Part shown: one piece after another, positions 32,515-59,490 of the stretch
How positions within the stretch are numbered: the first letter of the stretch is position 1
Layout: each line of letters begins with the position of its first letter
NCBI GenBank assembly: GCA_001600615.1
Contig: BCKK01000005.1
Location: 1,327,559 to 1,391,558, forward strand
Length of the DNA: 64,000 nucleotides
Origin: Dioszegia crocea
Lineage: Eukaryota > Basidiomycota > Tremellomycetes > Tremellales > Bulleribasidiaceae
Reading direction: 5' to 3'
Made by a program: the position numbers and the translations under genes
Notes under the pieces: model-generated
Database searches by the model: none
What the model was told of the DNA's origin: nothing
What the model saw: only the letters and a program-made list of their open reading frames with translations

Positions 32515-34254
32515 CTAGTCAAGATCATAAGCCCGCACACCTTTACTATCCACAAGCAAGATCTGGCCCGTCCTCCGTAGATATTTCCAGGATACCTCGT
32601 CCCTCTTTATCCTCCTTCCAGACCCTCTACCAATCATCTCTACATCCTCATTCTCTTCATTCTGCCCTTCCACTCTCATGCCAATCCTCCATTTCCGCCC
32701 TTTGACCAGATCAATAATTTCCACACCGTCCTCCACCGCTGTAGAGAATGCCAATCTGATGCCCCACTCACTCTCCCGTCCAGGCGGCGACGGTAAGAAC
32801 ATCAATGACTTGATACCCAAAAACCCAGATGCGAGACTTTTGATATCTTCCGAAACGTCCATACCCCTCATGCTCAACCGCCGATCTTGGATCGCCCTCT
32901 TCTCTTCGCCTGCCCTCGGGGAGTGAGGGGTTAAGAGCAAGACACGCCCATCCGCATCGCCTCCAATCGCTATTAGACCCTGGCTCAGGTCTACTCCACC
33001 CTCCATGTTATCACTCGAAGCCATGTCGGGCAACAACCAGGCGAGTTGTCGATACCAGTGTGACCGACCTTCAGGCTTAAATCGCCAAACCTCCTCTCCC
33101 GTCTTTACATCCCACAAGTGTATTGTCCCATTCCCACATGTGCCCAGGAACTGACTTCCGTCCGGACTCCAATGCCCGATCCAATTCTGTCCCTCTGTAC
33201 GCCAACACCATTTCTCTACGCCTGTACTGACGTCCCAGACCCGTATGGTCTTGTCCCACGCTACGGAAGCGAGGAGCTTATCATCCGGCGAGAACCCGGT
33301 CCACATCAGGCAGTCCCGATGGCCTTTTAGGATGATTGACTTAGGTGGAGGGTGGGGTGTAATCGAAGAGGTGAGGGTAGGGTCGAGGTCCCTGATACTG
33401 ATATCCCAAGGTGCGTCGCCATTTGACGCCGGTCGGGGTCCAGGCTGATATACCAACTTATCCCCCGAATGGCTAAACATGGTCTTCTGCCATGAATTGG
33501 CCGGGCGCCCCGCTAATTTGTTTTGCGAGAAAACCAGCGTGGTAGTATCCGCTTTCTGAAGGGCAGCGCGGATAGTATGCCGGAGCTCGGTTTCTTCAGC
33601 AGGATCAAGGGTATAGCGATGTTCCACGGAGATTGGGAGACCGGGCAGGGGGGCTCGAGCGGGACCCCAACCTGCCGCTGAGTCTGAGGAAGCACGGACA
33701 GCGAGGACGCCAAGGGCAGTATGGACTGCCGCTTCCGAAGCGATATCGAGCGCTTCGTCGCTTATGGCCTGTCTGACCGAGAGGGATTCGGTGTCCCAGA
33801 GTATCATCTCGGGTCCGCCTGGTGGAAGCGCCTGGCCTACCCGACCCAGCGCTGCGTCGTCGGCGTACGACACCAGACGGGTGCTGCTGCCCGGTAGAAA
33901 TTGGACCGTCTGTATATTCTCAACATGGCCCCGCAGGATGAGAGGCTGAGGCGGGGGTGGGGATGGGGAGGAGTGGGTGGCGAGGAGGTTTAGGTCGTAT
34001 ATATGGATATTGGGACCTATGGCTATGGCGATTTTGGTTTCTGTATCGTCCAAATTCGGCGGACAGCCAAGAGGGGTGAAGGATGAAGTTGTAGTGGGGT
34101 TGGGAGGAAAGGGGAGGAATGTGGATTCTGATCCGATCGGTTTCACGGTAGTCGGGAGGGAGGTATCGGTGGGAGGTGATGATAGAGCGCGAAAATCTGT
34201 GTCGATAGCATAGCGCCAGTGCTTCCGCATCTCATCGATAGATAGCCTCGTCAT
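32515..34254 (-). CDS. WD40-repeat protein, intronless
   Basis: 579-residue protein from one uninterrupted exon, unusual beside neighbours with 3-11 exons. WD40 blades are clear: LILRGHVENIQTVQFLPGSS, ILKGHRDCLMWTGFSPDDK then LLASVAWDKTIRVWDVSTG, and FLGTCGNGTIHLWDVKTG. An N-terminal HWRYAIDTDFRAL segment and a long linker separate the first and later blades, and a charged tail ends VRAYDLD. The fold is a beta-propeller scaffold. Fungal homologues include ribosome-biogenesis and Asa1/Wdr-type factors, but I cannot name the subfamily. No signal peptide, membrane segment or enzymatic motif is visible. Confidence 0.85.
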   Translation of the reverse strand: MTRLSIDEMRKHWRYAIDTDFRALSSPPTDTSLPTTVKPIGSESTFLPFPPNPTTTSSFTPLGCPPNLDDTETKIAIAIGPNIHIYDLNLLATHSSPSPPPPQPLILRGHVENIQTVQFLPGSSTRLVSYADDAALGRVGQALPPGGPEMILWDTESLSVRQAISDEALDIASEAAVHTALGVLAVRASSDSAAGWGPARAPLPGLPISVEHRYTLDPAEETELRHTIRAALQKADTTTLVFSQNKLAGRPANSWQKTMFSHSGDKLVYQPGPRPASNGDAPWDISIRDLDPTLTSSITPHPPPKSIILKGHRDCLMWTGFSPDDKLLASVAWDKTIRVWDVSTGVEKWCWRTEGQNWIGHWSPDGSQFLGTCGNGTIHLWDVKTGEEVWRFKPEGRSHWYRQLAWLLPDMASSDNMEGGVDLSQGLIAIGGDADGRVLLLTPHSPRAGEEKRAIQDRRLSMRGMDVSEDIKSLASGFLGIKSLMFLPSPPGRESEWGIRLAFSTAVEDGVEIIDLVKGRKWRIGMRVEGQNEENEDVEMIGRGSGRRIKRDEVSWKYLRRTGQILLVDSKGVRAYDLD

Positions 34255-34844
34255 GGTGCTCAGATAAGTCGTATACTTTGGCTATGGTGGATGTGAATTA
34301 GAAAGCGGGAAGCCACCACAGGCAGGCTCTGGCGGAGATGACGACGAGGAATGCTGACATGTGCTGCTGGGCTTGGCGCTGCTTGGCGCCAATTTCAAAA
34401 GCCCACATCCCCGCGATCTGCGCGGTCACAAGCACAGCAGTATTCACAACCCAAAGTCCATGCTGTCATTCTAATTCGTGTATATTGAAGTCTAGCAGGA
34501 GTCAAGGTCGGGGGGTTTGAGAGGCTATGAACAGCTAGAACTTGTTCTCCTTGCGCTAACTATCGACAAGCCATCAAACTCCATCCATGCACATACCAAA
34601 AACCAAAGAGGAGGGAACGGGTGAGAAAAGAGGGAATGAGGAGAAGTGGGGGAGTGAGAGTTTAAGGCTACCAAAAGGGAGGAGTTAAGGGGTCTTTCTG
34701 AACCATTCCTTATCCTGTACATTTCCCTGAGAGAGTTTGTAAGACGAGTTTCATTTGAGTTTAAAATCCGGAAAGTTGAGAGAAGGGAGTCGAAAGCACC
34801 AGGACCGAGGCGAGAAAGCGAAACAAGGCGTGAAAGGGGGGAAT
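34255..34844. other. Intergenic region, WD40 promoter and HOG1 3' flank
   Basis: 590 bp. A TGGCGCTGCTTGGCGCC inverted element lies around 34375-34391. The part next to HOG1 is purine-rich on the plus strand (GGGAAGG-type runs) and is probably its 3' UTR. No gene was seen. Confidence 0.45.
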
Positions 34845-39170: not shown

Positions 39171-40777
39171 TCACTCCTCCTTGATCTCCTCTGACATGAT
39201 CCGCCGCATCTTCCTTTTTATGGGCCGATTATCGAGGGAAGGCTTCACATCCTCCTCACCACTCATGTCGTTCGTGAGATCGATCACATCGCCTGTGGTC
39301 GTCGTCGATACGGGATGAGCTTTTTCCGCCCGGCCCGCTTTCCGCTTGCGCTCCATCGTTCGGTCGGTGGTGATGTCCGCTCGAGTCTTCTTCCCTTTCT
39401 TCGCAGCTCGAACTTCGGCCGGTTTCTATATATGCGTCAGTGGATTGTACTCGAAGTGGCCTTCTGCCTGATTGATGACTTACTTCGCGGACAAAGGACA
39501 CCTCTCTCTCCTCGTCATCCGCTGCAAACCCGACTGGACCCGATTGCTGTTGCGGAGAAGCGGTCTCCGATTTGGGACTCATGACGCCGGCAGGATCTGA
39601 CTCCAGTGATGATGATGGAATGCGACGAGGGGGTCCCGGCAAAAGGATGAATGATCCCTCCGATCCAGCGGGCGTTGTTTGGCGAGATGAACGTCGATCT
39701 GGCGAAGCAGGTCGAGCCTTGGAGGCGAGCATGTCCTCGATTCTCTCTCGCGGAGCATACTGCTAATGTTAGCCATTAAGATCAAGTGCCAATTATAGGT
39801 CGACGCGCTTTAACGCACCTTGATGTTGAAAATGTAGAAGGGTCCTTCGCCATCCGTGTGAACCTCGCTGGAGACACGAGAGGTTCCCTCAGATGCTTTC
39901 ACGACTTTTGAGCCTCCACTGTGCGGACAATCAGCGGAGCCAAGGATCGATGATCAAAAACGAAAACTTACACTGTCATCTGGCCCAACCTGCGAGAATC
40001 AGCATTTTGAGCATCAACGAGTGATGGAGCCCCATGCAAACTCACTTGACGTCCTTTTCATACGCGGCGCCCACATCCTCGACCTCTGATTCTGATGATT
40101 CCGATGGTTCGGCAGAGTCCTCCTTCGTCTCTATAGAAGATATCCAGCCGTGTTCCAGCTCGATGCTGATTGAGCCGAGTTTAGCGGCATCTTCAGCATC
40201 AACTTCGGCGTCGCTCCGGTTATCCACGGTGTCCTGTTGCTGTCAGAATGGCTGACTTCCCAGGGGAATCACTCACGACTGCAGCGAACTTGAGACGACG
40301 ATCGGATGACGGAAGGGTCTCGACTTTGAAGCGTTTCGTCTTGAGAACCAGTGTTCCCCTTGGGAACTCTCGACCGTCGATACGAACGGTCACGATCACC
40401 GCCTTCTTCCGCCTTCGGTCGTCGGAGGCTAGGTCCTTAACGACAATTTTGTATTCCTTGAGTCTCGTCAGCCACCTCCGTGACATTTCGATTGGAGTGG
40501 ACTCACCCTCCCTAATTCATTGCCCACCCACGAGTGCTTCCCAGCAGGTTCATCATCCGTTGCTTGTCTTGGCACGACTTTATGCTCCTCTAATACACGT
40601 CAATGCTCTCTCCATCACAATTGGAGCACGGTGGAAAACTCACTGAGCCGCTCCTCGTTGCCGTCGACGTACTGAAGGTAGACCTGCGAGTCAGAACTTA
40701 GGCCAAGTGCAGTGGAGTCAAGACCTCGTCTAATGACTCACCTCGAAGTCTTTGCCTAGACCTCTACCCCTGGGCAT
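39171..40777 (-). CDS. Array paralogue copy 1, DUF7918-like domain with SUMO-interaction-like tail
   Basis: 391 residues from nine exons (40777-40742, 40683-40644, 40589-40507, 40456-40277, 40233-40046, 39989-39972, 39918-39819, 39759-39484, 39425-39171). It starts MPRGRGLGKDFE (36-nt exon 1), then VYLQYVDGNEERLS, VIVTVRIDGREF, LGSISIELEHGW and FYIFNIKYAPRERIEDMLAS. This is the strand pattern of the basidiomycete domain DUF7918 as I remember it. The 18-nt microexon encodes LGQMT between a split Lys and Val. Exons 8 and 9 of the other copies are fused here and the poly-Ser run is missing. The tail is Lys/Arg-rich, then DVIDLTND (the best SUMO-interacting-motif match of the array), and ends SEEIKEE, with the acceptor-like IKEE. 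A nuclear role is inferred. Confidence 0.82.
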
Positions 40778-41056
40778 ATTGAAGACGTTTGCGATGATAG
40801 AGAGGGTTGAAGTCGAAGCTGAACTCAAAATGGTTGACAACGGCCCGAGCTCGGTGGATTCGGGCTGATGACGGCATGTGTGTATTGGGTGCCTACCGTC
40901 GTGCAGTAGTCCCACATCCCTGTGCGCCTCTGTATACAAGCATCCACCCTTCTGGTTCCACAGCTAACAGGCATAAGTCATCGAGGCCGAAGATGAGATT
41001 CTGAATATGTGATCAGTAGACACCCATCGACAACCGCCACTTCGGGGATATACGGC

Positions 41057-42622
41057 TCATTCTATCTTCACTACATCCTGCTTAAGTCGTCCTGATACAC
41101 TTACTGAAGGATCTGCCCCCTCATCATCAGTATCACCCGTCAGGTCAATCGCGTACTGCCTCTCCTTGCCCTTCCTCGATTGCGCGTTTTCTTCCCGCTT
41201 CTTCCGCTTCGCCGATTCCTTCTCCTCCAGCCTCATCACCTTCCGCTCCCTCTTCTTCTTCCTCTTAACCTTCTTCTTCTGTAAACATCAGTCATCTGTA
41301 CTGAAGGATAGAAGCGAGGGCATAGCTCACCTCGGCCATTGCTCGGACTAGCTGTGCCAGCTCTTCTTCCCCCGATGATTCTGATGCTGATCCAGCCGTC
41401 GATGATGAATCTGATGGGCCGGAGCTAGAAGGGGCCGGAGAAGCAGGCCGTGGTCGCTTCTTATCGCGTTTGGCCAGTGGAGGGGGGTCGCGAGAGGACG
41501 AGGGTGATTGGGCGATACTGGAGACTGCATGTGTGGAAGTTGTCGAATGTGATTGGGGACTCACGGGCACCAGCACCATTTTGGCTGCTGCCGCTGTAAA
41601 ATGAGCTGAAGGCAACTTGCGCTCCACGGAATGACTCACCCTCGTTCTGTAGCTTCTCAATCACGGCCGAGGTCCCATACTGCTGAAGTCAGCGACCAGC
41701 AAAGGGACCCGAATAACGAAGGACCGGTAGCTCACCTTAATGCGGAACTCATAGAAGTAGCTTCTGTCGGCTTCAACGAAAGTACAGGCTGTACCTCGAG
41801 AAGCAACAGTGGTTCTTGCGTCTTTGCCACCCCTGATGCTTAGCCTCGCCCCATATCATCACCCAAGCCACTCACGTAGTCCTGCAGCCCATTTCTGCAT
41901 CATTAGTAAGATTCCTTTCTCGCTGCCAGAAGAAGACTTACTGGCATCCTCCTCATAAGCAGTCCCAGCCTCCTCGAAGACTTGAGGAGAGTATGCACGT
42001 TCTCGCTCGAGCGACATCGTACCATATTCCAGTTGAACAAGGACGCAAGAAAGCCCTTGCGCTTCGACATAACCCATGTCTGCGTCTTGCGGAATGCTCA
42101 CTGTGTCGATGGGGGCGAAGCACAAGGGATAAGTCCCCCTTTTGCCGTCTCGCCTGATATCGATCGTACTGATTGTCCATGATTTGTGCGTACCGGACAG
42201 GATCCGATCTTCGACGTGCCGGCCGTCGATATGTACTGTCACGCAGACTGCGCGATCTGGAGGTCGGTCGGTAGGGAGCAAGTCCTTGATGAGAATCTTG
42301 AAGTTCTGTTTGAGCATCAGCTCGGTGGTGCGGATTCAGTTCATGCTACGCGAGACTACTCACTAATCCCGGTTCACATTCAGCCAAGACTTTCATCCCC
42401 GCCCAATCACCTCCTGTAGCCTCAGTAGATACCGCGTTGTGCTCCCCTGTGTCATCAGCGAGAATCGCAAATACCAAATGGTAGCACTTACTAAGCTTCC
42501 TGAGTTTCCTCTTGTCGTCTGTCTCAAAAGCGAGATATACCTAAATGGGTCAGCCCGTGAAAGTAGGGATTAGGAGAGACATTGACCTGAAAGTCTTTGC
42601 CGGCTCCTTGACCTTTGGGCAT
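41057..42622 (-). CDS. Array paralogue copy 2, DUF7918-like domain with SUMO-interaction-like tail
   Basis: 390 residues from nine exons (42622-42587, 42540-42492, 42446-42364, 42305-41942, 41894-41876, 41832-41736, 41679-41640, 41593-41331, 41278-41057). It starts MPKGQGAGKDFQVYLAFETD. The domain strands are VCVTVHIDGRHVEDRIL, TYPLCFAPIDTV, VLVQLEYGTM and YFYEFRIKYGTSAVIEKL. The intron that separates exons 4 and 5 in every other copy is absent here, and the microexon is 19 nt instead of 18, with a compensating phase change at its donor side. The Ser/Pro-rich stretch PASPAPSSSGPSDSSSTAGS is followed by an acidic cluster. The Lys-rich coiled coil leads to AIDLTGDTDDEG, and the protein ends QDVVKIE, with acceptor-like VKIE at the extreme C-terminus. 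Confidence 0.82.
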
Positions 42623-42960
42623 GATTGGTTGTGGTACAACTGGAATTAGCTACGAAAGAAACAGAAGGCGGGTGATATGAGTGATCGTGAGACAATCATC
42701 GACAAATTACCGAATCAGCGGCTGCCGCATGTCAGGTGTCGCGCACAGACGCCGACATGTGTCCCGCTTGACATCAGATTTCGGCCGTGCGTTACCGGAA
42801 GTTGCGTCTCGACTGGTGAGTAAGCCAGGCACCAAGCTTCGACCTATGATCAGTCGTAAAGCTTCTGAAAGCCGCAATTACCAAGAAATCATAGGATAGG
42901 CCAGAATGACGGGATGGGGTCGAGAAATACTGTTACAACTTGCGCATCCACCCACAAGGC
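42623..42960. promoter_or_regulatory. Array spacer between copies 2 and 3
   Basis: 338 bp holding the copy 2 promoter and copy 3 3' flank. No exon and no obvious TATA box. Confidence 0.4.
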
Positions 42961-44661
42961 CTACCCTTTTGGCTCAGCCTTCACTGCCGTGTACAGCGAT
43001 TCGTCCCTGACTCGTGACGGGTTAGCGCCCCCTGTCTCCGCCTCATCATCCGTATCTCCGGTAAGATCGACAATATGTCTCTTCTTACTTTCCCGCCGCT
43101 TATCCTTCTCTTCCTTTTTCTTTCTCCGCTTCTCCTCCTTTTTCGCTTTCTTCGCAGCTTTGGCCTTCTTTCTCTGCGCCTTATTTGCCTCTTGAGTCTG
43201 TTGATTCAGCTAAAGACTGTGCGATAGGAATTTTCAGGACTCACCGCCATGAATAGCTTGAACATCTCCATCATTCCCGCTTTATCCCCTACGGGCGCGT
43301 CTTCAGAGTCCGACGACGAGGTGCTAGACCCGCTGCTAGCGGACGATGCAATCGAGGGCGATCTCGTGCGCTTCCGATGAGGTTTGGAGGTTGGAGGTCG
43401 GAGGTCGAGAAGATGAGGCCGTCGCTTGCGGCGTGGGAGCGTGGGCAGCTTTTGGGGTGGGCGCTATAGGCTGGGGTGTAGCAGACATTGATTGCGGAGT
43501 GGGAGGTATAGCGGACTTGGCGGCTGCTCCGCCTAAGATGTCAGCGTAGGGTCAAATCGATGTCGGAGGCATTTCGAACCTCTATCAATCCGACGCTTCT
43601 CGAGTACCGCCGAGGTAGCATACTGTCTCCATCAGCCAAGCTCCACAAGTGTAAGGCAGAAGCATACTTTGACGCGGAACTCATAGAAGTAGGTGTCCCA
43701 TCCCTCTGTGTCCGGCGTGAAGACCGACGCATCCATATGCTTTTGAGCCTTCTTTGCGGCGGCTGCGGTTTTTGGCTTGCCTACCCGTCTGTATGTATCA
43801 GAGAGCCGTATGCTGGTCCAAGTGTACCGCACTTACTTGACAATCGTGCCCATCCTTGGTTTGGTCAGCTTATCTCTCTCAACTGCCTGGCGGCACAGCA
43901 ACTCACTTGACGTGCCGCTCGTAGATCTTCCCATGCTCCTTCATTACTGGAGCGGGGTATGCTCTGCCCCTATCTCCGCGACTTGATCCATAATCAAGCT
44001 CCACAATGATCTCTCCAGCAGTGTTCGCAAATGCTGCTGGGACCTCAGCTTTCGAAATATCGTCCACTGTATCCTGCGCACATTCAGCACAGGCATCTCT
44101 CGCGGCAGATGAGCAGAAATACGACTTACGGGCTCGGAAAAGACTAGCGGATAGGTGGATGTCGTACCATTCTCATCGAAGTTGCCAGTCTCGACGATGT
44201 GTTGCTTTGAGTCGCTCAAAAACATCAAGCGGTCAACCACTCGCTCTTCCCGCCTTCCATCGATGTACACCGTCGCCATCACTTCTCTCAAGCCGACGCA
44301 TTTTTCGGGACTGTGGCATTTGAGAATGATCCGAAATGCCTGCACTTCGTCAGCGCGCAGAAGGCAGCTAAGATTATCCTGGTGCTCACTTTGCCTATAT
44401 GCGATTCGATCCAGACATCCATGTAGGCAGGTTGCCCATTTTGAGCTGGGTGGTGCTCTGCGTCGAATTCCTCTGCGTGGATGTCAGATTTGCCGCTACC
44501 TATAATCAGCAAAATCATGACTCACTAACTCTAGTCTTGCTGTTCACGAGCTCAACGATGAACTGATATATAAGCTGGCCGCCTTGACCGGGAGATGACT
44601 GGACTCCATCTGAACCGAAACACACTTCGAAGTCTCGTCCGGGTCCTATGCCTCTAGGCAT
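42961..44661 (-). pseudogene. Array paralogue copy 3, frameshifted in a 7-bp repeat
   Basis: Exons 44661-44626, 44562-44526, 44472-44390, 44339-44130, 44073-43907, 43854-43837, 43788-43668, 43622-43580, 43532-43245 and 43197-42961. All splice sites and the domain are intact (MPRGIGPGRDFE, TVYIDGRREERVV, TYPLVFSEP, IIVELDYGSS, FYEFRVKYATSAVLEKR). Exon lengths sum to 1240 nt, one base over a multiple of three. The reading frame breaks in exon 9 at about 43378-43408, in tandem GAGGTYG units. Translated as it stands, the protein stops soon after with none of the tail. The downstream sequence is still clean coding (KKRHIVDLTGDTDDE, then VKAEPKG) in the shifted frame. So the break is recent, reversible by slippage, or an assembly error. 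Confidence 0.75.
43378..43408. repeat. 7-bp tandem repeat at the copy 3 frameshift
   Basis: On the plus strand: GAGGTTTG, GAGGTTG, GAGGTCG, GAGGTCG in a row. One extra 7-bp unit, or the extra T in the first 8-bp unit, shifts the frame by exactly the +1 observed. Confidence 0.8.
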
Positions 44662-45185
44662 ATTTTCGCTTCACGTCGATGCCTGGATATTTGGACTGGT
44701 AGATTGGGCTACAGAGCGGTCCACAGCAGAATTTCCAGGTAGTAGTAATAGTAGGCATACATGAGATGGCTCTGCAGGTGATTTTGAACGCGGTGAACGC
44801 CTCGGTCCGGCCGGATTTCCGTTATCAATATCAATGTCCGGGTGAAATCCGGGTAACTTCTCTTGCCATACAGTTCTGGGGCTCATACATGCATACAGGA
44901 CAGTTCAACTACATCTCCATACGCGCTGGTATCCATGGCAATGACTAAGTCTAGGCGAAGGCGTGTCTCAGAAAACGAGAACTGAGTTGCAGAGCGAGGA
45001 GTCATTTTATGCCGACGGTACGAAGAGGCATTCCGTGCCGTCATGGGGTCGCTGGGCCGGCAAGATGGGGAAGCAATGATCTGCTGATCAGTCATCCGGC
45101 GGGTCAGATCAACCAAGAGATAGCAGACGAACTTGAGAGATTTGTCGACCCGAGCAGAGTCTCAGGGCTCTCCCTTCCCAACCGC
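44662..45185. promoter_or_regulatory. Array spacer between copies 3 and 4
   Basis: 524 bp, A/T-richer than the genes. No exon was seen, and the sequence is not recognisably similar to the other spacers. Confidence 0.4.
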
Positions 45186-46810
45186 CTACTTGCCTGGCGG
45201 TTCCTGCTTGACCGGTTTCGCCGTCCTGCTGTACCTCGTTCTCCCAGCCTTACCGGATTCTTCCGCTTTCCCGCCCGCCGCTTCGTCCTCATCCTCTGTG
45301 TCCCCTGTCAGGTCGACGACCGAAGGTCCTCCTCTTTTATCTTTCCGCCCGTGTTCTCGCTTCTTCTCCTTTTCTGCCTTTTTCTTGGCCTTCTTCGCTT
45401 TCTTCGCTTTCCGCTTCTTTTCGGCCGCAGCTGCCTGTTGCTATAAACGTTAGCTCGACGAGAGCAGGGAAGAACAACATCATCAAGCAAACTCACCTGT
45501 ACGAACGCCTTGAAGAATTCCATCATGTCCCCTCCGCCAGCCTCGTCCTCGGAGTCAGATGATGAAGACGATGAAGAGCTGGAGCTCGATGAGCTAGATG
45601 GGGTGGGGGAGGGTGGACGAGTCCGTTTTCGGGAAGGCCCATTAGCCTGAGTGGATGAGGAAGCACGAGATTCAGCGGTCGGAGATAGTGGAGGGTCTGT
45701 CAAGGGTATCAGCTACAGCTCCAATTTCATCGAAAGCCTCACGAAGACCTACCTAACCCCAGTTTCTGCCTAAGGATATCACGAGGACAGTGCTTTCTCG
45801 TCAGCCAGCTAGGCGTACACTTGAATGGGTAGACTCACGTTCAACTTGAATTCGTAGAAGAACCCTGATTCCGTTGGATGGAAAGTCGAGCATGGTATTG
45901 CCTTCGCTTTCGAAGACTGCGGGGCATTGGCCTGTTCTCCACCTCTATCCCGCTCAGCCCTGGTGCCTCGCTAACCCCAACAGGACTCGCTTACTTTATC
46001 ATGGACCGCATTCTGATCATCGTCAGCTCTGTCCCCTTCCAGAGTACGGGGGCGACTTACTTAACAGACTGCTCCCAGACCTTTCCAACCTGAGAGACCA
46101 CAGGCGGCTTGTACACCTTCTCTCCCGCCGATGACACTCTGCCATACTGTAGTTTGACAATTATTGAGCCAATTGCCGAAACGTCTTGAGGAGCGGCTTC
46201 AGCTTTCGACGGATCGTCTACTGTATCCTACAATTTCAGTCAGCGCACTTCACGTCGTAGGGCTCTGCGCCATCAAGCGTTGGGCCTGATAACTCACGAT
46301 AGGAGAGAAGACGAGTGGAAGGGTGACTGTTTTCCTATTTACGGCCATATCGATGGTCGAACATGTCCACTTCTCCTCGGCACGAGCAAATATCGCTCGT
46401 CCAGATAAGCGTCCATCAACAAACACCTGAGCGTGAACTTTCTTGTCCTCAGCGCGAACAGTAGTGCTCGTGCTCTTGGTCACTATCTTGAATTCCTATA
46501 TTGCGTCAGACGAAGACCATTACAGCTGCCACCAATTGACTCACTCGGCCAATCTCAGACTCAATCCAGACCTCTGTCCGAGCTGCTCTCCCACTGCTAG
46601 CATCGTATGCCTCAGGTTGGACCTCATCTGAATTCGGTCAGTCCAGGTAACAATTCACATCTAGGCGCATTTGGGCGTACTGAGTCTTGTGCCATCAGAG
46701 AATTCGATGTATACCTGATCTGGTCAGCAGAGTAGTATGTAGAGACATTACACTCCTACTAGACCATGACTTACCTCAAAGTCAGAGCCTTCATCAGCGC
46801 CGCGGGGCAT
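45186..46810 (-). CDS. Array paralogue copy 4, DUF7918-like domain with SUMO-interaction-like tail
   Basis: 369 residues from ten exons (46810-46775, 46714-46681, 46627-46545, 46495-46298, 46227-46061, 46012-45995, 45944-45839, 45765-45753, 45696-45497, 45440-45186). It starts MPRGADEGSDFEVYIEFSDG. The domain strands are AQVFVDGRLSGRAIF, TLPLVFSPIDTVDDPSKAEA, SIIVKLQYGRV and FFYEFKLN. Exon 8 is reduced to 13 nt (KLGL), so the YxTSAVLEK helix of copies 2 and 3 is lost. The 14-Ser run follows RKRTRPPSPTP, then DSEDEAGGGDMMEFFKAFVQ. The tail is a Lys/Ala-rich helix, VVDLTGDTEDEDE, and the acceptor-like VKQE in AKPVKQEPPGK at the end. A TATATATAAT box (46850-46859) lies about 40 bp upstream. Confidence 0.82.
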
Positions 46811-47295
46811 TGTACGACTCCAGCAGATCTTGGAAATTCACGTTCCGCCTATATATAATCTGCGACGACTATTCTAGACTGCAAAGATGATACGCCGCTA
46901 TTGTGCTGGAGTTCAATGACCGCAGTGTTAGATGAGCTACATCTACCTTGGTGATGGTGTTTGCTTGTTCGCTTGAAAGCTGGAGATGGACAGGAATGAT
47001 GTGACGGGTTGTCGCTGGGACCACTCCCCAGGAACTGAAAGGAGCCCCGCATTTTCGGCTCAGGCACGGGTGGCGGCAGTCGGATGTGGCACTTTCTGCC
47101 ACACCAAGCGGCTGATTATATATGTCCATAGATCTTGGTCTCAGGAGCTTGAGAAGCCGTAAGGGTACACAGGGAGACGATGCTCATCAGATCATCGACG
47201 GTACTATACATTTCAGGTATTGAAACTTGCCCTTGGGCGCTGTCAAGTCTGCTGAACCGATCCACCCAGCCTCATCGCGTTTTTGCCACCGGGTC
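46811..47295. promoter_or_regulatory. Array spacer between copies 4 and 5
   Basis: 485 bp. It holds the TATA-like box at 46850-46859 and a second ATTATATATG run near 47115. No exon was seen. Confidence 0.4.
46850..46859 (-). promoter_or_regulatory. TATA-like box of array copy 4
   Basis: ATTATATATA on the minus strand, about 40 bp before the copy 4 ATG, which is close for a TATA box and suggests a short leader. Confidence 0.45.
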
Positions 47296-48934
47296 TCACA
47301 TCACCGTGCCCTCCTTATCATCTGATGAACCGCCCGTCAGATCCACTCGAGATTTCGAGCTTCTCCCTATCCTCCTGTTCGACCGCGACTCTCGCCTCCT
47401 CTGCTTCTTCTCCTTGCGCTTCACCTTCCTCGTCTTCTTCATCTTCCGCTTCTTCTCCGCTAGACTTTCCTGCTGCTGGAAAGTATCAGCTTACCGACTT
47501 ATTTATCATCACAAGTTCTGACTCACTTGCACAAATGCCTTGAAGAATGACACCATCCCCTGCTGATCTCCATTCTCCGATTCCGCGGATAAAGATGACG
47601 AGGAGGAAGTCGAAGAGCTTGAGGAGCGGCGGTCAGCTCGAATTCGAGCAGAAGGACCTGCCCGATTTGTCATTCTGTTGAGCTGATGTGAGGTCGAGTC
47701 ACTACCCGGGATAGCGAGAGGCGACTCGATAAGACTCGCTGCCTTGGTCGATTCCGCATTGACTTTGGCCACATCAGCGTTCGTCCTCACAAAGCCAATT
47801 CCACACGCACAGTAAGAGGCGGGTTGCCCGTCCCGTACGACTCGAGTACAGTACTGAGATGATGAGTCGACGGTTCTCCAGTCCACAGTGACTCCCGGCC
47901 GGGCTAGCGTCAGACTTGCCTTTAGCTTGAAGACATAAAAAGGGTCTTTTTCGGTTTGAGAGGCTTTCCACCACGCCACATCCTTTTCGGGCTGAGGTAG
48001 CGATCCACCCCTGACCGAATAGCGCGTAAGCTAATTCTTGTATCGAGAGTCAGACTGCCCGAGAAGAGCGGATACGCACTGGATTCTTGATCTCATTCTT
48101 CGGCTCATAAGCAGCAAGCTGATAAACTATGGCGATGATGAGAAGGTGACTTACTTTAAGCCCTTCTCCAGTTCCCATACCGTTCCCACGTCCGACATTA
48201 CACGCGGTTTATGTACGATGTCGGCATCTTCAAGTCTCCAAGTACCGTACTTTAGCTCGATCGTGATGATTCCTATCTGCGGCGCTTGGTTCGAGGACAC
48301 GTCAGCCGATGTCGGATCCTCCGTTCGTTCCTAAAAGCGTGGTTAACAAGTGCGAGATAGCGTTATTGTATCCGGATCCGAACAGTAGACTCACGATGGA
48401 GGAGAAGACGAGAGGATAGCTCGACACTGCGCCATCCCGGCTCATCATCATGCTACTGCAGCGTCCAAACCAGCTATTGACGAAAATTTGCTTTTTGAGT
48501 ACACGACCATCAATGGACAGCTTTGCCTGAACGTGCTCCCCCTCAGCGCGCCGCGCGGAAGGACAGTCTTTAATCACAATGATGAATGCCTGCGAATGTC
48601 AGAACGCTATGCACAGAGGTCCCGTCGCATGGTTTACCTTTGACTCCTCGCATTCCATCCAACACTCGTTTCGTGCCGGCTCGTCTTCTGTGGCTTCGAA
48701 GTACGACGGCCTGAACTCGTCTGTTCGATTTAGCTCAAGTACTTCAACGCATCGCTTGACATGGTCATGCAGATTCGAAGGGTCCTCGCCAAGCGACTCA
48801 CCGAGTCTTCTTCCGTCTGCGAACTCAAGATACACCTAAAGCGATATGTGAGCTAACGCAGCCGATAGACAGCACGTTCTTGTCTTCCGGTCACTCACCT
48901 CAAATTCGCTCCCTGATCCTTGCCCTATCGTCAT
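47296..48934 (-). CDS. Array paralogue copy 5, DUF7918-like domain, altered tail
   Basis: 363 residues from ten exons (48934-48899, 48835-48802, 48720-48638, 48589-48395, 48330-48155, 48097-48080, 48010-47920, 47853-47811, 47762-47527, 47475-47296). It starts MTIGQGSGSEFEVYLEFADG, not MP(R/K)G as in the others. The domain strands are WMECEESKAFIIVIKD, AKLSIDGRVLKKQIF, SYPLVFSSI, IITIELKYGTW and FYVFKLKYCTRVV. Intron 7 opens with GCAAGT, a GC-AG intron where the sister copies have GT. The tail has the SSSSSTSSSSS run and MVSFFKAFVQ, then a Lys/Arg-rich helix and VDLTGGSSDD, the least acidic version of the motif. No psi-K-x-E site follows. TTTATA at 49059-49064 (TATAAA on the minus strand) lies about 125 bp upstream. 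Confidence 0.8.
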
Positions 48935-49863
48935 TATTGATGATGGTGTCACTGAGAGAAGTGAGAGTTCCTCAAGAGTGATACTAGAGATGGCGGACGG
49001 GTTGCACAAGAAGATGAGTGAGGGGCAAGAGGAAGTGAGAACTTGGCTAACTCGCCCATTTATACTCAAGACCTGCTTCTGCACAGTGCAAGCGCACAGA
49101 CTGCTCCTGTCAGCTTCGATAGGCACGTTCGAGGTCATAGCGCCTGCTTCCGACGAATCGAAGCACGCCCTGTCTCTTATCAGTGATTTCTGACCGCACT
49201 ACGCCCCTACTTCGACGTCGCATCGTGATCTGATACCTCGGTACCAGCATTTTTAGGCCGTCGCAGAATTTGATACGTGGAGCTCATCCTGACGATATCC
49301 CGCCCTGAGTTGATCAGTCGAACACTTGTTAGTGCAACGCATGTCCCACATGCTGGTGCAGTATCAGACAGCTTGGTGTGATGGTCGCTCACCCGGTCGA
49401 ACACCTTGCTTGATCAAGCGTGAATATGCTGGAGCCCGATGAGCAAGATGAGTACCCGACAGTCTGAAATCAATGTATACCGACAACTTTGAGGAAGGGG
49501 CGAGTGTAGGTTTATGCAGTTTACGAGTCTCAATACGGTCCCAGAGTGGTATCGCGGGTAGTCAGTCGCGCGTCAGGAGCATCGTATCGCGCCGCGCCTA
49601 GTGAGGGATCCAAGCAGTACTATGCCACAGATGACTTGTCTACAGTCAGTCATCAAATCAGCCCCTACCCTCGCCCATCAGTCTGTCGATGTGACAAGTA
49701 AGTATGGGTCTCGACGTACAACATACATTCGCGTACAACGTTCACCTACCATCTTCGAGGTCATTCTCTGTCTCGCCGAACGAGTTCCACCATCTCCTCT
49801 TCCACCTTGGACGCAGCTCCACTTTAATGCCGCTCGAGCACGACCCGATCCTCTCCCGTTCTC
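48935..49863. other. Largest spacer of the array
   Basis: 929 bp between copies 5 and 6, two to three times the other spacers. I searched for remnants of a lost copy (MPRG start, IDGR, DLTGDT) and saw none. TTTATA at 49059-49064 is the likely TATA box of copy 5. A 65-codon minus-strand ORF (49207-49404) has no support. Confidence 0.45.
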
Positions 49864-51391
49864 CTACTCCTCATCCGTATCCCCCGTCAAATCGATCGAA
49901 GCATCCGCATGTTTGCCCTCACGCTTCTTTGCCCGCTCCGCTTTCTTCTTCTCCTTTTTGGCCCTCTTCTTCTGCTTCTTCGCCTTCTCTGACTTCTGCC
50001 TCTTTTCTTCCTTGGCTTTCTCATCCTGAGGAAGCATCAGCTTCGTATAGCAAAAGGTACAGCGAACGTACAGCTATCATTGCGCTGAGTAACGCCATCA
50101 TGCCACCGGCCATGCCGCCCTTCGATTCCTCGGAAGACGATGATGATGACGATGAGCTAGAGGAAGAGCTAGATGCCGAAGAGACCGACGGAGATCTGGC
50201 TCGTTTGCGACTAGTGGATGACGGGCGTTTAGGCGGGATGGGTCTATTCTTGCTTGTGATGACCTCGGTTTCGTCTTGTGATCCGACTGGAAATATGTCA
50301 ACGCCTTCCCGATAAGCATGGTAATGGACGTACACACATCCGGGAACTTCTTCTCAAGGACAACTCTTTCGCAGTACTGTAAGATCAGCATCTCTTCGAA
50401 GCGGCGGTACAGGGAGGTCTGACGTACCTTGATGCGGAACTCGTACAATGGCCCCTTCTCGCCCTTGGCTACCTTGAAATCTACACCTCCTTTACGAGCA
50501 ATATTTTTCGAGTTGATCACAGTAGTCTCAGCACTCCTATCGCTATCAGCAGCGCAAATGTCCCCAGCTGACTGATAAGCCATACATCACAACTGAACCC
50601 ATCCTGAGGCGTCAGCTGTAGCCAAGAGATACAGGGAAAGAAGTCGTACTTAGCATCCAGCTCCCACATCGTTCCAAATTTCTCGACCACAGGACGAGCC
50701 CAGTCCGTCCTTGATGGCGAAAATGACCCATACTCCATGTGAACCACTATAGAACCGATGACGGAGACCTGTCTCGGGTCGATTTGCGCGTCAGCCTTGT
50801 CGGTTACTGTATCCTGCCACTCGGTCAGCTCTTTCGACCATGAATCACGGAACCGCGATCTTCGACCCACAATGGCTGAGAATGTCAGAGGACCAGTCGA
50901 TAACTTTCCATTCACCATGGTCACCATATTCTCGATATCGCGAGTATTCTTTGCCTTGTAGAAAGCACCGCGGTCCAACAGCCGCCCATCGATGAAGGTC
51001 TTAATTCTGACTTCATTCGGTGCAATCCTGTTCGTTCCGAACGAGTCCTTGAGCACAATTCTGAAAGTCTGGGGCTGTCAGCGTTGAACCGATCTGAATC
51101 TTGCAACGATATCCTGTAGCTGACCTTCAGACTTTCGCACTCCATCCATACATCTGTGTGAGGAGTTCCTGGGTCACCATCATGTGCCTCTACGCAGAAT
51201 TCGTCTGATCCGGTCAGCTCAAAAGACGAGGATCTCACGCAGGTGGTTGATGACTCACTGAGTCTCTTTCCTGACTCCGTAAACTCGAGGTATACCTGGG
51301 CCAAGTGAGCTGAAGTCCTGGATCATATTGCGACTCAGAGGCGAGGATGACAAACCTCGAAGTGTTCACCAGCTCCTGCACCTTTGGGCAT
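49864..51391 (-). CDS. Array paralogue copy 6, DUF7918-like domain with SUMO-interaction-like tail
   Basis: 353 residues from ten exons (51391-51356, 51295-51259, 51204-51125, 51068-50871, 50813-50650, 50603-50586, 50536-50428, 50376-50335, 50287-50072, 50025-49864). It starts MPKGAGAGEHFEVYLEFTES. The domain strands are WMECESLKTFRIVLKDSFG, IKTFIDGRLLDRGAF, GPLTFSAIDTVTDKADA, SIVVHMEYGSF and YEFRIKYCERVVLEKK. The microexon encodes MGSVV. RKRARSPSVSS is followed by a 15-Ser run, then GGMMALLSAMIA and a Lys/Glu/Gln-rich helix. The protein ends directly in SIDLTGDTDEE, so the SUMO-interacting-like motif is the C-terminus and there is no acceptor-like site. It is the shortest and outermost copy. 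Confidence 0.82.
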
Positions 51392-51935
51392 TGTGAAGGG
51401 CACTTGATAGGTTTAGGACTGTGTGAAGGAAATGACGAGATTGAGAGGCAGTGAGTAGACCCGACGAGATCGTGACGCGCGTCCTCAGTGAGAAGGCATC
51501 AGCGCACAGACCCCCTTGGTCCGATCAGCCTTCTTTCATCCCTAACTTTCGAGCCTCTCATTGTATCACACTTCTTGATTCGACGAGGTATTGAGAGTCG
51601 AGCCGAGCGGGGCAGATCCCGAGGACAATACGATAGCGATACCACTCCAGCAAGCACACTCGCAAGCAGAGACGGTAGGTGTCAAGCTGCGCTGCTTGGG
51701 GGACTGCCTGTGTACGTAAGGGAATCCTTATCATCCCGGTTCTTTCCGACGGAGTCGATATCTCCCCCAGATCTCCCCGAGAGCCCCACCACAACCACCA
51801 CCTCACACGACTGTCCATAACAGCAAGCATCAACCCCCCTCACCCTCAAATGTATATATCATAACCATTCGCCTAGCCCTTTGGCCAAAATCAATCCCTT
51901 TCCGCCCGATCCGATCAGCTCACGAGCGCCCTTCA
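51392..51935. promoter_or_regulatory. Divergent promoter region, array copy 6 / mitochondrial carrier
   Basis: 544 bp between divergent starts. TATATATCATAA lies at 51849-51860, about 80 bp before the carrier start. No coding exon and no further array copy. Confidence 0.5.
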
Positions 51936-53681
51936 ATGCGCTTTGAGATCGCGTCCACCGGGTCCGCCTCATCGTCATCTCCTACTTCCGCCCATCTGCC
52001 CCGCTGGGATTCGCTCCGATCACCAAATAGCAAAGCAGAAGAGTTTACCTCTGTTGACGTTGCCGAAACAGCCGACATCTCTCCCGGATTGGACCCGCTC
52101 GAGCTTACCAGCCCCGCCCAATCTGTAACTTCCCAGCCGCCCATACCCGAAGCCCGGTCCGAACCCGTACTGAGCTCGAACGGCAACCACGGCAGCAAGT
52201 GGACACCGCCGGAGACTGTTGTCGAGCGAATTCAGGATAAGATGTATGAGAATTCAGCGGTGATTAATACGTTCATCGCGGGCGGGTTGGCGGGAGCTAC
52301 GAGTCGGACGGTTGTTAGTCCGCTGGAACGACTGAAGATCATCCTGTAAGTTGGCAGTGGACTGAACTGGCTAGTGTCACGTATGTATGGTATGACTGAT
52401 TGAGCTTAGGCAAGTACAAGCTCCGAGCTCAGGCAAGAGCGGCTCAGGCCAGGCGTACGGTAAAGTATGGCCGGGTCTGGTTCGGATGTGGAAGGAAGAG
52501 GGATTTGCGGGTTTCATGAAGGGTAATGGCATCAATGTGGTCAGAGTGAGTCAAAGTCGTCGTGATGAGGCATGTGTAAAGTTCTGTATATGAGGAAATG
52601 CTGATCATGTCAGATATTACCATACTCGGCTATACAATTCACCGTAAGTCTGTCCTTCGAGCTTCGCATATGCCGATATGGTACCAGGCAACAGCCCATC
52701 TGACCGTCGGAGATGATTAAAGCTGACATACCAGTCATACGGCTATGTCAAAACTCTGTTCGGCCGTTGGTCAGGACAAGAAACCCTATCCACACCTCTT
52801 CGTCTAGCATCAGGAGCCACTGCTGGGATCCTAGCTGTGTGTGAGTTGTCTCCTGTGGCCCGGATAAGGCTATGGCTGACAGAACAGCTGCTACATATCC
52901 ACTCGATCTCGTTAGAGCTAGACTATCAATAGCCACGGCCAATATGTCTCGGTCAGGGGCCATGTTTACTGCGGAGGATGCGGCATTGGGTATTGTTGGT
53001 ATGACCAAGAAGGTGTATAGAACGGAAGGAGGTATCAGGGGTCTTTAGTGAGTTTGCTGGTCATCAACGATTTTTGAATGTACGGAAAGCTGATATATCA
53101 GCCGGGGATGTTGGGCTACTGCTGTGGGAGTTGCGCCATACGGTAAGCCGTCCCTTCTTCGCCCAGAAGAGAATCATCACTAACGTGCAGTATCACTAAA
53201 TTTCTACATCTACGAAACACGTCAGTCCCCTTGACCGTGGACTACCTCAGCCGTGCTGACCTCACAGTCCGCCCCATCATCCTACCACCAGGCTACGAGC
53301 CGTCAAATGACTTCGAACTCGTCGGTCGTAAACTCCTTTCTGGCGCACTAGCAGGAGGCACCTCCCTACTCTTCACGCACCCATTCGATGTCGTCCGGCG
53401 GAAACTACAGGTGGTCGGAATAGGCGGGGCAGAGAGGGAGTTTGACGGGGCGATAGACTGTATACGGAAGATTTCGGCAAGAGAGGGGTTCTGGAAAGGG
53501 ATGTAGTGAGTTCTTCGCCCCTGATCTCTGTCTTAGGTCGTCAGCTAACATGGCCAGTCGTGGTCTTGTGCCTAATATCATCAAGGTTGTTCCTTCCATC
53601 GCCGTATCGTTTTACACGTTCGAGACTGTCAAGGAATCCTTGACTCAGTGGTCGAATCGAGATAAGGAGGAGATCGTGTAG
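51936..53681 (+). CDS. Mitochondrial carrier, YPR011C-like (APS/PAPS or related nucleotide)
   Basis: SLC25-family inner-membrane carrier. Nine exons (51936-52345, 52410-52545, 52614-52643, 52735-52840, 52888-53047, 53102-53142, 53191-53220, 53268-53505, 53558-53681) give 424 residues, with about 105 N-terminal residues of Ser/Pro-rich extension before the first repeat. The three signature motifs are SPLERLKIILQVQ, YPLDLVRARLS and HPFDVVRRKLQVVGIGG. Order and wording of segments such as FMKGNGINVVRILPYSAIQF, GGIRGLYRGCWATAVGVAPY and GLVPNIIKVVPSIAVSFYTFE match yeast YPR011C, described as a carrier of adenosine phosphosulfates, and more distantly the CoA carriers (SLC25A16/42). Substrate is therefore inferred. 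Divergent from array copy 6. Confidence 0.9.
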
Positions 53682-54516: not shown

Positions 54517-57500
54517 ATGGTGATGGATTCATCATCTACCGGCTCCCCCTTTTCGACCCAATCCACCGACCCCTCTTCTCCCGAATCAGCTGCCCATCCC
54601 AACGGAATTGCAGATAGCTATACCCAGGCCCTACAGGCGCAGGCGGCGGCGTTGCGGAATGGATTCGGGTTGTCATTTGCCGCGGGTGGAAGTAAAGGGA
54701 TGAGAGCAGGGTCGCCGCTCAAGGATGTCCAGGTCAAGCTGGAACCGGGATCATCACCTTTACCGCCGAACAGGTGAGCCTCAGAAATGATTAGAGCGAA
54801 TGAAGATGCTGATGATGGAGAATCACACATCATCCCTCTGCCCATAATCCGCCAAGCGTCTTCCGCCCGCAGACTACAAATCTCCACTCGCATAATGTTG
54901 CCGTTTCTGCCGCTTCCTCCAGGGCTACTTCCGTAGGCATTACGGAAAGTCTGAATGGGTCCATAGCCGGCGGAGTGGGACATGGCGGATTGGTATCGCA
55001 GATCCAGAGCCGATCAGATCCGCCCAAGCGGTTGATTGAGGTGGATATACTGCCAGTGGGGAATACGCCGTTGGATGTGGTGAAGTCTACACCAGAGTGA
55101 GTCGTTACGGAAATCATCTTATTGGCACCCAAGCTGACGTCTCAGACGAAATGTGCTGCTTCTCCAAGGAGATCCTCAAATCATCAATAAGCAGCGCGTC
55201 GAAACTGCCATCCGCGTAATTCTCGATCTCCTCCGCTCAATCCCACCGACACCTACCACCCAACCTCTCCCTCCAGCTCTCTTCAATCTCCTACCGCCTG
55301 AAAACACCCTTACAAATCTCGCATTAGAACGTATCAGTTGTTTCCGCGGCCTTCGGCTCCAATTGGGAACAACGACCAAAGCAACAGCGAAGAAACAACT
55401 CCAGGCGGGCGTGACGCCAGAGCACGAGATGGTGTATATTGAAGCGGCGGTGTATATGTCTGGCGAAGGCGGGAAGCGGGTATATGCCTGTAAGCGATGT
55501 CGACAGCGAGAACATCGGCGACGGGCAAGTAAAGACGCTTCGAGGAAGAAACCCGCTTCGTCAGGGTCGGATACGTCCACTCGGCCACCTACGGCCAATC
55601 AGGGTTTGCCACCGAGTGTGAACTACATTACGGGGGCGAATCCAGATCAGTATGATCCGCATCGGCTCGATCAGGTGGTGGAGGAGCCTGGATTTGACCC
55701 GAATCGGGTGGATTGGAGGCACGAGATTGTTCTCTTCAATTCGGCGCCGGAGGTGCCTATAAAGGATGGGAGCTGTGTGTGGTTACCATTCAGAGTGGTG
55801 TGTTATGGTAAATGTCACGGGGAAAAGGTCGGATTTAGGTATGTTGGATTGTTTGAATAGAGCTAAAGGTAGAATCAAATTCACCCTTCGGACTCGAGAT
55901 GGCACAATCGTTGCTACCTCCACTACCGAACCTATCCGTATCACGGACGATCACAAGACGGACAAGAATGCCAAACCCAAGGCCGAACACCCCTCTGTAT
56001 CCCACGCTCAACCAGCCGTACCCCGTCCACGCAAAGGCAAAGCCAGCGCTGCATCCTCCCGCCGTCAATCCCCAGCTGCATCAGAAGCAGACAGCGTACA
56101 ATCCCTATCCGAAGCTGGCGCAGTAATGCAGAAGCAAACACCCAACGTGCGCACAAAGCCATACGAGCGACCTCCAACGCACTCCCCATCCGTCCCTGTC
56201 GGTAATCTCCCATACGACTTTTCGCTTAATGGCGCAATGACGGTAGCTCCGCGTTTCCAACGACAAGTGTCGGCGGGCTCGGTACCTTCGCTCAACTCCA
56301 TGCTGTTGCAGCCTTTGCAGGACGATACGATGGGTGTAGATCCTGCACTGTCCCGTCCTGTACTGGTACCCAATTTCGACCCCATACCTGCGTCCGGCAC
56401 TATCTCTCCGGGCGCCCTCCGTCATCCTAATTTCAACATGACGCCTCTGGACGGGTACGGCTTCCCTTCCTCTCGCCCCCAATCAGCGACATCCTCCAAC
56501 GTCGCCAGCCCCATCAATGGCCTTCGTCCACTCAGCGACGACGTCCTGATGAATGGCAACCCCCTCCGAACCCAATCCCACACCCTATCCAGCGCATTTG
56601 CAAATCTCAACGCAATGAGTATGCAACAGCAACAACAGCAGCAGTCACTCATGCTGTCCGACTACCTTGCGGACCAGGACATGGCACACACTCTCAACTC
56701 AGCAATGGACGGGCTGTTTGACCACTCGTCCGTGTCGAGCTACGATGACGCGTCGGGCTTCTCTGGTTTCAGAGACAGCGCGTCCGGCTTATTCTCAGAC
56801 AGTGGCGTCGTACCCGACACGGGCATGGAGTCGTTCCTTGATTTCTCGGGGGGCGAGGATCAAAATCTTGCGCAGCCTGCATTCGACGATCAACTATCTC
56901 CGTTTGGCGGATCAAGCATCCCCCCTCTATTTGACCTGGATATCTCTTCCCCTATGCAAAATCGCCATATCCCGGCAGTCGACGGGATGATGACCGAATC
57001 CAGCCCGGGCCCGACAGAAGCGCAGCTACGCCAAATGCTCGCTTCTATCGAGTCTATGAGTCCTGCCCAGCCTCAACCGGTTGTATCCCACGTCATTCCT
57101 GCCGAAGGTCCACTAGCTGGCGGTATCCAAATCGCTATTGCCGGACAGAGATTCTCGCCGGGCATGACGATAGTCTTTGGATCCAGAGTGGCCAAGACTA
57201 CCGTCATCTCGGACAGTTTCTGCACGTGCGAATTGCCGCCTGGATCAGATTCGGGGTTAGTGGAGGTCAGTGTACAGGGCGCAGTCAGGATGCAAGGTCA
57301 GAAAGTGGAGCAGTTCAGATATCAGGGTATGGATAAGGAGATGTAAGCCTTGCGTTTCAAGCTGGGGATCAAGCTGATGGATCAGGATGAGACTGGCTCT
57401 GGAGGTCAGAGATCAGTATCAGGGCTCTTCTGGCGATGCGGCTTACCGCCTCGCGACTCGAGTTGCCCAGTCTACGCATAGTGGCAACTCAAGCGACCGC

Positions 57501-59044: not shown

Positions 59045-59490
59045 TCAGGAGAAGAAGAGGAAAGTAATACCATTAATTGTACCTCTAGGTATCCCATCAA
59101 GCGAACACGACCAACACGATGTATTTCGGATGATAGGTCATGTGTCGGGGTACCTGCATGGATTGGGAGGTTTCGTTACACATTTGACATGGCAGTCGTC
59201 GTCACCTGGACTGAATTATATACAGTGTCCTGTTTTCGGCCGCAGTCCACCTCGCCAAGCCTTCGTCCCAAACTTCATCATCCCGGCCAAAGAATCTTGC
59301 ACCCCTCGCCCGTCAAACATCCCTCGTCAATCTATGATCCTCTCATTATTGCTTTGGATGCGGTATCGAGAAACGAATTCTTGCGGCATGTCAGCGGAGT
59401 CATCCTTTGCATTGGTAACAACAGGAGGGCTCACCTCATACATCAAGCGCTGGCGCTCCTTCTTTGCTTTCACCGGACCGAGCTGCGACT
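59045..59490. other. Intergenic region between convergent genes
   Basis: 446 bp between the MGA2-like stop and the Zn2Cys6 factor stop. Open stretches with splice-like borders occur on the minus strand (59332-59463) but are out of frame with the factor and have no other support, so they are probably 3' UTR. Confidence 0.45.

What the first reader, a model, noticed from the sequence alone, without database searches (positions are those of the whole stretch)
39171..51391. Six-copy old tandem array of DUF7918-like proteins with SUMO-type tails
Six head-to-tail paralogues share exon plan and protein layout but are strongly diverged. Each has an MP(R/K)G...DFE start and a beta-rich N-terminal domain with an IDGR strand and a FYEFRIKY segment. 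After that come a Ser-rich acidic stretch, a short amphipathic helix, a Lys-rich helix and a (V/I)DLT acidic tail. The N-terminal domain resembles DUF7918 of basidiomycetes from memory. The combination of this domain with a SUMO-interaction-like tail in a maintained multigene array is, to my knowledge, not described. Diversified arrays with conserved architecture often reflect conflict, self/non-self recognition or dosage-tuned chromatin roles; which applies here is open.
Basis: partly seen in the sequence, partly recalled or inferred. Interest (0 to 1): 0.9.

Follow-up and report, generated by a model that had tools for sequence, protein, structure and literature searches.

The report
Tandem fungal genes with SUMO tails
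Six neighbouring fungal genes encode relatives of an uncharacterised mushroom protein family whose tails often carry signals for attaching and gripping the small protein SUMO, which suggests that the family works through the SUMO system.

Summary
Six spliced, head-to-tail genes lie on the minus strand at 39171-51391. Pfam places them in DUF7918 (PF25534): five of six pass the cut-off of 27 bits and the sixth scores 25.5. Their domains are 28-38% identical and the six group together against 30 mushroom homologues. Own-genome searches with four of the six found no other convincing copy. One copy (G3) probably has a broken frame before its tail.

Of 120 fetched homologues, 76 end exactly in [VIL][VIL]DLT. 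Of 104 tails tested, 93 carry a SUMO-acceptor consensus (psi-K-x-E), 185 sites against 20 in shuffles. All six window tails carry [VI]DLT and four also end with psi-K-x-E. A homologue's domain is predicted confidently as beta-rich, with no confident solved match.

Best reading: SUMO-pathway substrate/reader proteins whose domains diversified by tandem duplication. SUMO binding and conjugation are inferred from motifs. Conflict/self-recognition remains untested.

The parts
39171..40777 (-). G1: DUF7918 gene, 9 exons, 391 aa
   Evidence: PF25534 41.7 bits
41057..42622 (-). G2: DUF7918 gene, 9 exons, 391 aa; exons 4 and 5 fused; first intron has an unusual GTCAAT donor
   Evidence: PF25534 25.5 bits, just under the cut-off 27
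42961..44661 (-). G3: DUF7918 gene; domain intact through exon 8, frame into the tail not kept by any well-scoring intron; tail exons still recognisable
   Evidence: PF25534 42.9 bits
45186..46810 (-). G4: DUF7918 gene, 10 exons, 378 aa
   Evidence: PF25534 52.6 bits, best of the six
47296..48934 (-). G5: DUF7918 gene, 11 exons, 348 aa, one GC-AG intron (47854-47919); starts MTIG
   Evidence: PF25534 48.5 bits for the domain
49864..51391 (-). G6: DUF7918 gene, 10 exons, 353 aa
   Evidence: PF25534 46 bits
39273..39287 (-). G1 SIM-like core VIDLT
41138..41152 (-). G2 SIM-like core AIDLT
43060..43074 (-). G3 SIM-like core IVDLT
45306..45320 (-). G4 SIM-like core VVDLT followed by GDTEDEDE
47335..47349 (-). 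G5 SIM-like core RVDLT
49885..49899 (-). G6 SIM-like core SIDLT
39174..39185 (-). G1 SUMO-acceptor consensus IKEE
41060..41071 (-). G2 SUMO-acceptor consensus VKIE
42973..42984 (-). G3 SUMO-acceptor consensus VKAE
45201..45212 (-). G4 SUMO-acceptor consensus VKQE

Best explanation
The array encodes six diverged paralogues of DUF7918. Each has a beta-strand-rich domain, probably a sandwich, that presumably binds a protein partner; then, in most copies, a Ser/acidic linker; a Lys-rich segment that is probably a nuclear localisation signal; and a tail that uses the SUMO system. The (V/I)DLT-acidic segment is a SUMO-interaction motif, and the psi-K-x-E lysine near the end of four copies is a SUMO acceptor. 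The proteins would be SUMO-modified and would grip SUMO on themselves or on other nuclear proteins, carrying whatever their domain binds into SUMO-rich nuclear assemblies. Tandem duplication diversified the domain while the tail signals were kept. Shown: gene structure, family membership, motif conservation in the homologues, and a confident predicted model of a homologue. Inferred: nuclear location, SUMO binding, SUMO conjugation, partner binding.
For: Pfam DUF7918 in the six; hhalign E 2.4e-18 over 194 columns against 120 homologues (one search gave 6e-19, but that set held P0001, a near-copy of G2). Tails of 104 of the 120 listed homologues: [VI][VIL]DLT in 74 against 0.07 expected, psi-K-x-E in 93 with 185 sites against 20; the reversed motif with D or E, a control, 32 sites against 34, with E alone 29 against 20 and psi-K-x-D 9 against 14. 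After a hydrophobic residue and K, the residue two on is E in 185 of 331; after other residues and K, in 33 of 623, which a nuclear localisation signal alone would not give. The query that found these proteins held neither motif. In 76 aligned tails the acceptor K column is K in all rows not gapped there and its E in 87%. Window: [VI]DLT in 6 of 6 tails (0 of 5000 shuffles), 3-6 acidic residues in the 6 to 12 that follow; psi-K-x-E in the last 15 residues of 4 of 6 (88 of 5000 shuffles give 4 or more anywhere in the tail). VIDLT is the PIAS SIM core, called one of the tightest SUMO binders, and VDLT the core of two RNF4 SIMs (PMC3901395, passages; PMC4907222, passages). The acceptor consensus is in PMC8616421 (passages).
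Against: No binding, localisation or expression data. A profile of the six tails finds a solved RNF4 SIM peptide only at E 1.5, below four lectins at E 0.05-0.17 that also hold VDLTGD. G5 and G6 lack psi-K-x-E, and in the other four it lies after the SIM, not before it. The profile comparison aligns the domain only (columns 10-224), so common descent of the two kinds of tail is not shown. 36 of 120 homologues lack [VIL][VIL]DLT within 8 residues of the end; 8 of these have another IDLT there, 28 do not. Basic K[RK][VIA]K motifs overlap the acceptor and are enriched too (87 sites against 4). Shuffling does not correct for shared ancestry. The tails also give below-cut-off matches to SR-25, a nuclear splicing-associated protein (G4 31.5, G6 32.3, G2 15.6 bits against 40), probably from Ser/Lys composition. 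G3 may be broken.
Confidence: 0.6

Rival explanations
1. The array takes part in conflict or self/non-self recognition: the domains diversify under selection against variable partners and the SUMO tail only places the proteins in the nucleus.
For: Tandem array with 28-38% domain identity; some mushroom species show DUF7918 genes with close locus tags on contigs of one length, so clustering recurs.
Against: No signal can be read from dN/dS (dS high or beyond estimation). The only short-term comparison, P0001 with G2, shows 0 of 121 amino-acid changes in the exon, purifying rather than diversifying for that stretch of one copy.
Confidence: 0.15
2. The DLT tail is a different C-terminal signal (degron or peptide ligand for another domain), not a SIM.
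For: In 76 of 120 homologues the motif is the exact C-terminus, which I would not expect of a SIM.
Against: In all six window copies residues follow the motif, mostly GDTDDE-like acidic ones, as expected for a SIM and not for a carboxylate-dependent signal. It goes together with the SUMO acceptor consensus (69 of 104 have both).
Confidence: 0.15
3. An ordinary lineage-specific duplication of proteins of no particular importance, some copies decaying.
For: G3 frame problem; the six group together and lie at one locus.
Against: Exon plan, domain and SIM core persist in copies whose silent sites are near or beyond saturation.
Confidence: 0.1

Closest known systems
DUF7918 (Pfam PF25534) proteins of mushroom-forming fungi
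   Same: Domain over its whole length; tail with SIM-like [VI]DLT and SUMO acceptor consensus in most of those fetched
   Different: In the window copies residues follow the SIM core, the acceptor (where present) lies after rather than before it, and most copies carry a Ser/acidic stretch
PIAS and RNF4 SUMO-interaction motifs
   Same: VIDLT / VDLT core (PMC3901395, PMC4907222, passages) and acidic residues after it, stressed for PIAS
   Different: No RING or SP-RING domain in the Pfam scan (G3 and G5 given only to exon 8); only the motif is shared
PML, a SUMO-modified and SIM-bearing nuclear-body protein
   Same: One protein with SUMO modification and a SIM (PML: PMC8616421, passages)
   Different: No sequence relationship seen; here both SUMO properties are only predicted
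PDE-delta and TEAD YAP-binding domains (PDB)

Membership tests
DUF7918 (PF25534) | Match to the Pfam profile over the curated cut-off | tested here: met
   5 of 6 at 41.7-52.6 bits against 27; G2 25.5 bits, E 1.6e-5, just under
DUF7918 (PF25534) | Whole-domain alignment with family members | tested here: met
   hhalign probability 99.0, E 2.4e-18, 194 columns, 120 homologues without P0001
DUF7918 (PF25534) | Same fold | tested here: inconclusive
SIM-bearing, SUMO-binding proteins | Hydrophobic core [VI]DLT with acidic flank | tested here: met
   6 of 6
SIM-bearing, SUMO-binding proteins | Measured binding to SUMO | not testable with these tools
   none
SUMO substrates | psi-K-x-E acceptor in the tail | tested here: inconclusive
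   4 of 6 window copies; 93 of 104 homologue tails
SUMO substrates | Observed conjugation | not testable with these tools
   none

The most novel reading that the evidence does not exclude
DUF7918 is a family of self-networking SUMO scaffolds in mushrooms and their kin: each molecule carries a SUMO acceptor and a SIM, in mushrooms mostly 12 to 18 residues apart, plus a helical segment, so that modified molecules chain together into SUMO-rich nuclear bodies like those built with the animal protein PML, with tandem arrays supplying different cargo-binding domains.
Probability: 0.12. Interest if true: 0.85.

Novelty: new variant of a known kind. Interest (0 to 1): 0.58.

Why it matters
DUF7918 has no function in Pfam, and some mushroom species show four or five members even in a capped list (for example Mycena rosella and Favolaschia claudopus with five each). 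A tail in which the acceptor lysine and the SIM core are the best-conserved elements gives a direct, cheap and testable hypothesis for the family: that these proteins act through SUMO. If true, these fungi hold a lineage-specific and diversifying arm of SUMO signalling.

Tried and rejected
Folding the window domain from its own exons gave a poor model (pLDDT 46), not used. A protein search with G4 found nothing at E 0.001 or better among 1434 candidates; with the six-row domain alignment, one near-copy of a G2 exon at E up to 1. No solved structure matches the domain profile at E up to 5. Two scans of viral contigs found pattern matches (20 and 50) but none confirmed. NCBIfam, a prokaryotic library, gave nothing for three proteins; Rfam nothing at its gathering scores in the window; the phage collection nothing. 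The PF25534 search of the own genome found nothing, but it also rang in no control, so it shows no absence. Histone chaperones with ASF1-like or nucleoplasmin-like folds were considered; none is among the 50 rows shown or, which does not exclude them. dN/dS was computed and set aside as saturated. Paper searches: family name and accessions PF25534 or IPR057678, the latter from memory: 0 papers; VIDLT with SUMO-interacting motif and fungi: 0; Agaricomycetes with SUMO-interacting: 0; two broader ones: 0. One search listed 12 of 19 papers on SUMO with basidiomycete and Cryptococcus; I opened none, so a mention there is not excluded. One search listed eight, of which I looked at passages of one (PMC8616421).
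Full report
What is there. On the minus strand between 39171 and 51391 lie six head-to-tail spliced genes. I modelled them by dynamic programming with intron scoring, anchored on conserved peptides, and corrected the models by hand. The final set has 51 introns, 50 GT-AG and one GC-AG, G3 being counted only to exon 8. Exon 1 is 36 nt in all six; exon 3 is 83 nt in five of six (80 in G6); an 18-nt micro-exon is kept in five of six (19 nt in G2); the first seven junction phases agree in five of six. G2 has lost the fourth intron. G1 lacks the exon 8/9 junction, and its middle does not show the Ser block and short amphipathic helix of the others.

G3. The domain is intact to exon 8. From there only three single introns reach the frame of its tail, and they score -3.1 to -4.6, against 1.9 to 8.5 for the 51 accepted introns. 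A two-intron path through a 29-nt exon scores 1.4 and -1.4. Either the copy has a frame break, or it splices unusually, or the assembly is wrong. The tail is still recognisable.

Support for the models beyond inspection. A protein from an unnamed contig (P0001) matches G2 exon 4/5. It is identical over all 121 exon residues, differs at 6 of 24 residues where the frame runs on into the intron, and at 0 of 4 on the upstream intron side (Fisher p = 1e-5 for exon against downstream). This supports the exon, its downstream boundary and purifying selection there; it is one pair of sequences and protein level only.

Family. Pfam PF25534, DUF7918, matches all six: five above the cut-off of 27 bits (41.7-52.6) and G2 at 25.5, E 1.6e-5. 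G1, G2, G4 and G6 were given in full; G3 and G5 only to exon 8. The Ser/Lys-rich tails also match SR-25 below its cut-off of 40 (G4 31.5, G6 32.3, G2 15.6 bits), probably by composition. Profile-profile comparison with 120 homologues gives probability 99.0, E 2.4e-18, over 194 columns; the first run, whose set also held P0001, gave 6e-19. Both align the domain only, not the tails. A tree of the six with 30 of the 120 homologues puts the six on one side of a branch, support 100/100, although the bootstrap had not fully settled and the root is not inferred. Pairwise domain identity is 28-38%; dS in the domain is 1.9 or more or beyond estimation, so the duplications are old or the genes evolve fast and dN/dS is not informative. 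Own-genome searches with G4, G6, G3 and G5 match only this array, apart from one stretch on another contig at E 0.3; G1 and G2 were not used as queries and only the best candidates are scored. No other tremellomycete genome was at hand and the organism was not identified.

Homologues. Searches with the window proteins reached nothing but P0001. I then typed DUF7918-like sequences from memory; four were tested and all hit PF25534. A consensus used as query returned 234 proteins at E up to 10, of which 120 were listed, all with PF25534 precomputed; the named ones are from mushroom-forming fungi (that grouping is my own knowledge). Some species show close pairs of locus tags on contigs of one length (Lyophyllum shimeji 0805510 and 0805520; Mycena crocata 1033883 and 1033888), so clustering of DUF7918 genes is not unique to this window.

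The tail in the homologues. The query held no SIM and no acceptor motif. Yet 76 of 120 end exactly in [VIL][VIL]DLT and 84 have it within 8 residues of the end. In the 104 of 120 whose domain end could be recognised (16 were dropped), [VI][VIL]DLT is in 74 against 0.07 expected from shuffled tails; psi-K-x-E is in 93, with 185 sites against 20; the reversed motif with D or E shows 32 sites against 34; 69 have both. With E alone the reversed motif shows 29 against 20, and psi-K-x-D 9 against 14. Basic K[RK][VIA]K motifs are enriched too (87 sites against 4) and overlap the acceptor, so a nuclear localisation signal could explain part of it; but E stands two residues after the lysine in 185 of 331 cases when a hydrophobic residue precedes it and in 33 of 623 when not. 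In an alignment of the 76 tails that end in DLT, the acceptor column is K in all rows not gapped there, its E at 87% and its hydrophobic residue at 79%, while most other columns are at 17-65%, two helix leucines (79 and 81%) and the GE before the SIM (70 and 82%) apart. D, L and T are fixed there by how the rows were chosen. In 81 of 81 proteins with both, the nearest acceptor precedes the SIM by 7 to 43 residues, 59 of them by 12 to 18; where the SIM is the very end, this order is forced. 40 of 120 have two or more [VIL][VIL]DL[TS] cores. Against this, 36 of 120 lack the strict core near the end; 8 of them have another IDLT there; 20 of the remaining 28 still have psi-K-x-E in their last 60 residues, and some are marked partial. 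Shuffling ignores shared ancestry.

The tail in the window. [VI]DLT is in six of six tails (0 of 5000 shuffles), preceded within 60 residues by 16-24 Lys/Arg and followed by 3-6 acidic residues in the next 6 to 12. psi-K-x-E stands in the last 15 residues of G1, G2, G3 and G4 and is absent from the tails of G5 and G6; four or more of six with the motif anywhere in the tail occurs in 88 of 5000 shuffles. Here the acceptor follows the SIM by 26-35 residues. That could mean the pairing was kept while its arrangement changed, or that it arose separately, or that the four are weaker evidence than they look.

Literature basis for the motif. PMC3901395 (passages only) gives VDLT as the core of two RNF4 SIMs and says that the VIDLT core of PIAS and its C-terminal flank are optimised for high affinity. 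PMC4907222 (passages) calls VIDLT the SIM of PIAS1 and cites a preference of (I/V)DLT peptides for SUMO2/3. PMC8616421 (passages) gives the acceptor consensus and describes PML as SUMO-modified and SIM-bearing. A profile of the six tails against solved chains gives an RNF4 SIM peptide at E 1.5, behind four lectins at E 0.05-0.17 that also hold VDLTGD: the motif alone is short, and only its conservation makes the case.

How it probably works. The domain binds a partner; the Lys-rich part sends the protein to the nucleus; the SIM and acceptor connect it to SUMO. The genome holds ubiquitin/SUMO-type domains (PF11976, 11 matches), though I did not separate SUMO from ubiquitin among them. Domain diversity with a kept tail suggests different cargo for one SUMO-linked assembly. 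Every functional step is inference.

Verdict. I found no paper on DUF7918 in the library searched. In checking this report I repeated the profile comparison without P0001 and added the residue controls; the odds did not need to change.

Noticed in passing
model m3e5447fa5ee6 (homologue P0006): The DUF7918 model matches 22 predicted proteins of large DNA viruses (among them ascovirus, granuloviruses, nucleopolyhedroviruses, iridovirus-type, pithovirus, mimivirus kin, nudivirus) at Foldseek E 0.001 or better, best 3e-11, while no solved structure matches better than E 0.04. TM-scores are moderate (0.19-0.59) and rmsd often large. Shared ancestry, capture or a common arrangement are all open; sequence scans of viral contigs found no relative.
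   Followed up: partly
43388-43622: G3 frame between exon 8 and tail is not kept by a well-scoring intron; a short CGACCTCC-like repeat lies there.
   Followed up: yes
47854-47919: GC-AG intron in G5 at the position where the other five copies have GT-AG.
   Followed up: yes
6113-6904, 30812-31789, 32515-34281, 51720-52349, 55763-57346, 57378-59525: Of ten long frames elsewhere in the window scanned with Pfam, six match ordinary families (family 20 hexosaminidase, class II tRNA synthetase of Phe type, WD40, mitochondrial carrier just under its cut-off, TIG, ankyrin) and four match nothing.
   Followed up: partly
P0011, P0014, P0017, P0022 (Mycena), P0021 (unnamed) and similar: A group of DUF7918 proteins, many from Mycena, lacks the SIM but ends in a stretch with one or more psi-K-x-E sites, as if the acceptor half of the module had been kept alone.
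   Followed up: no
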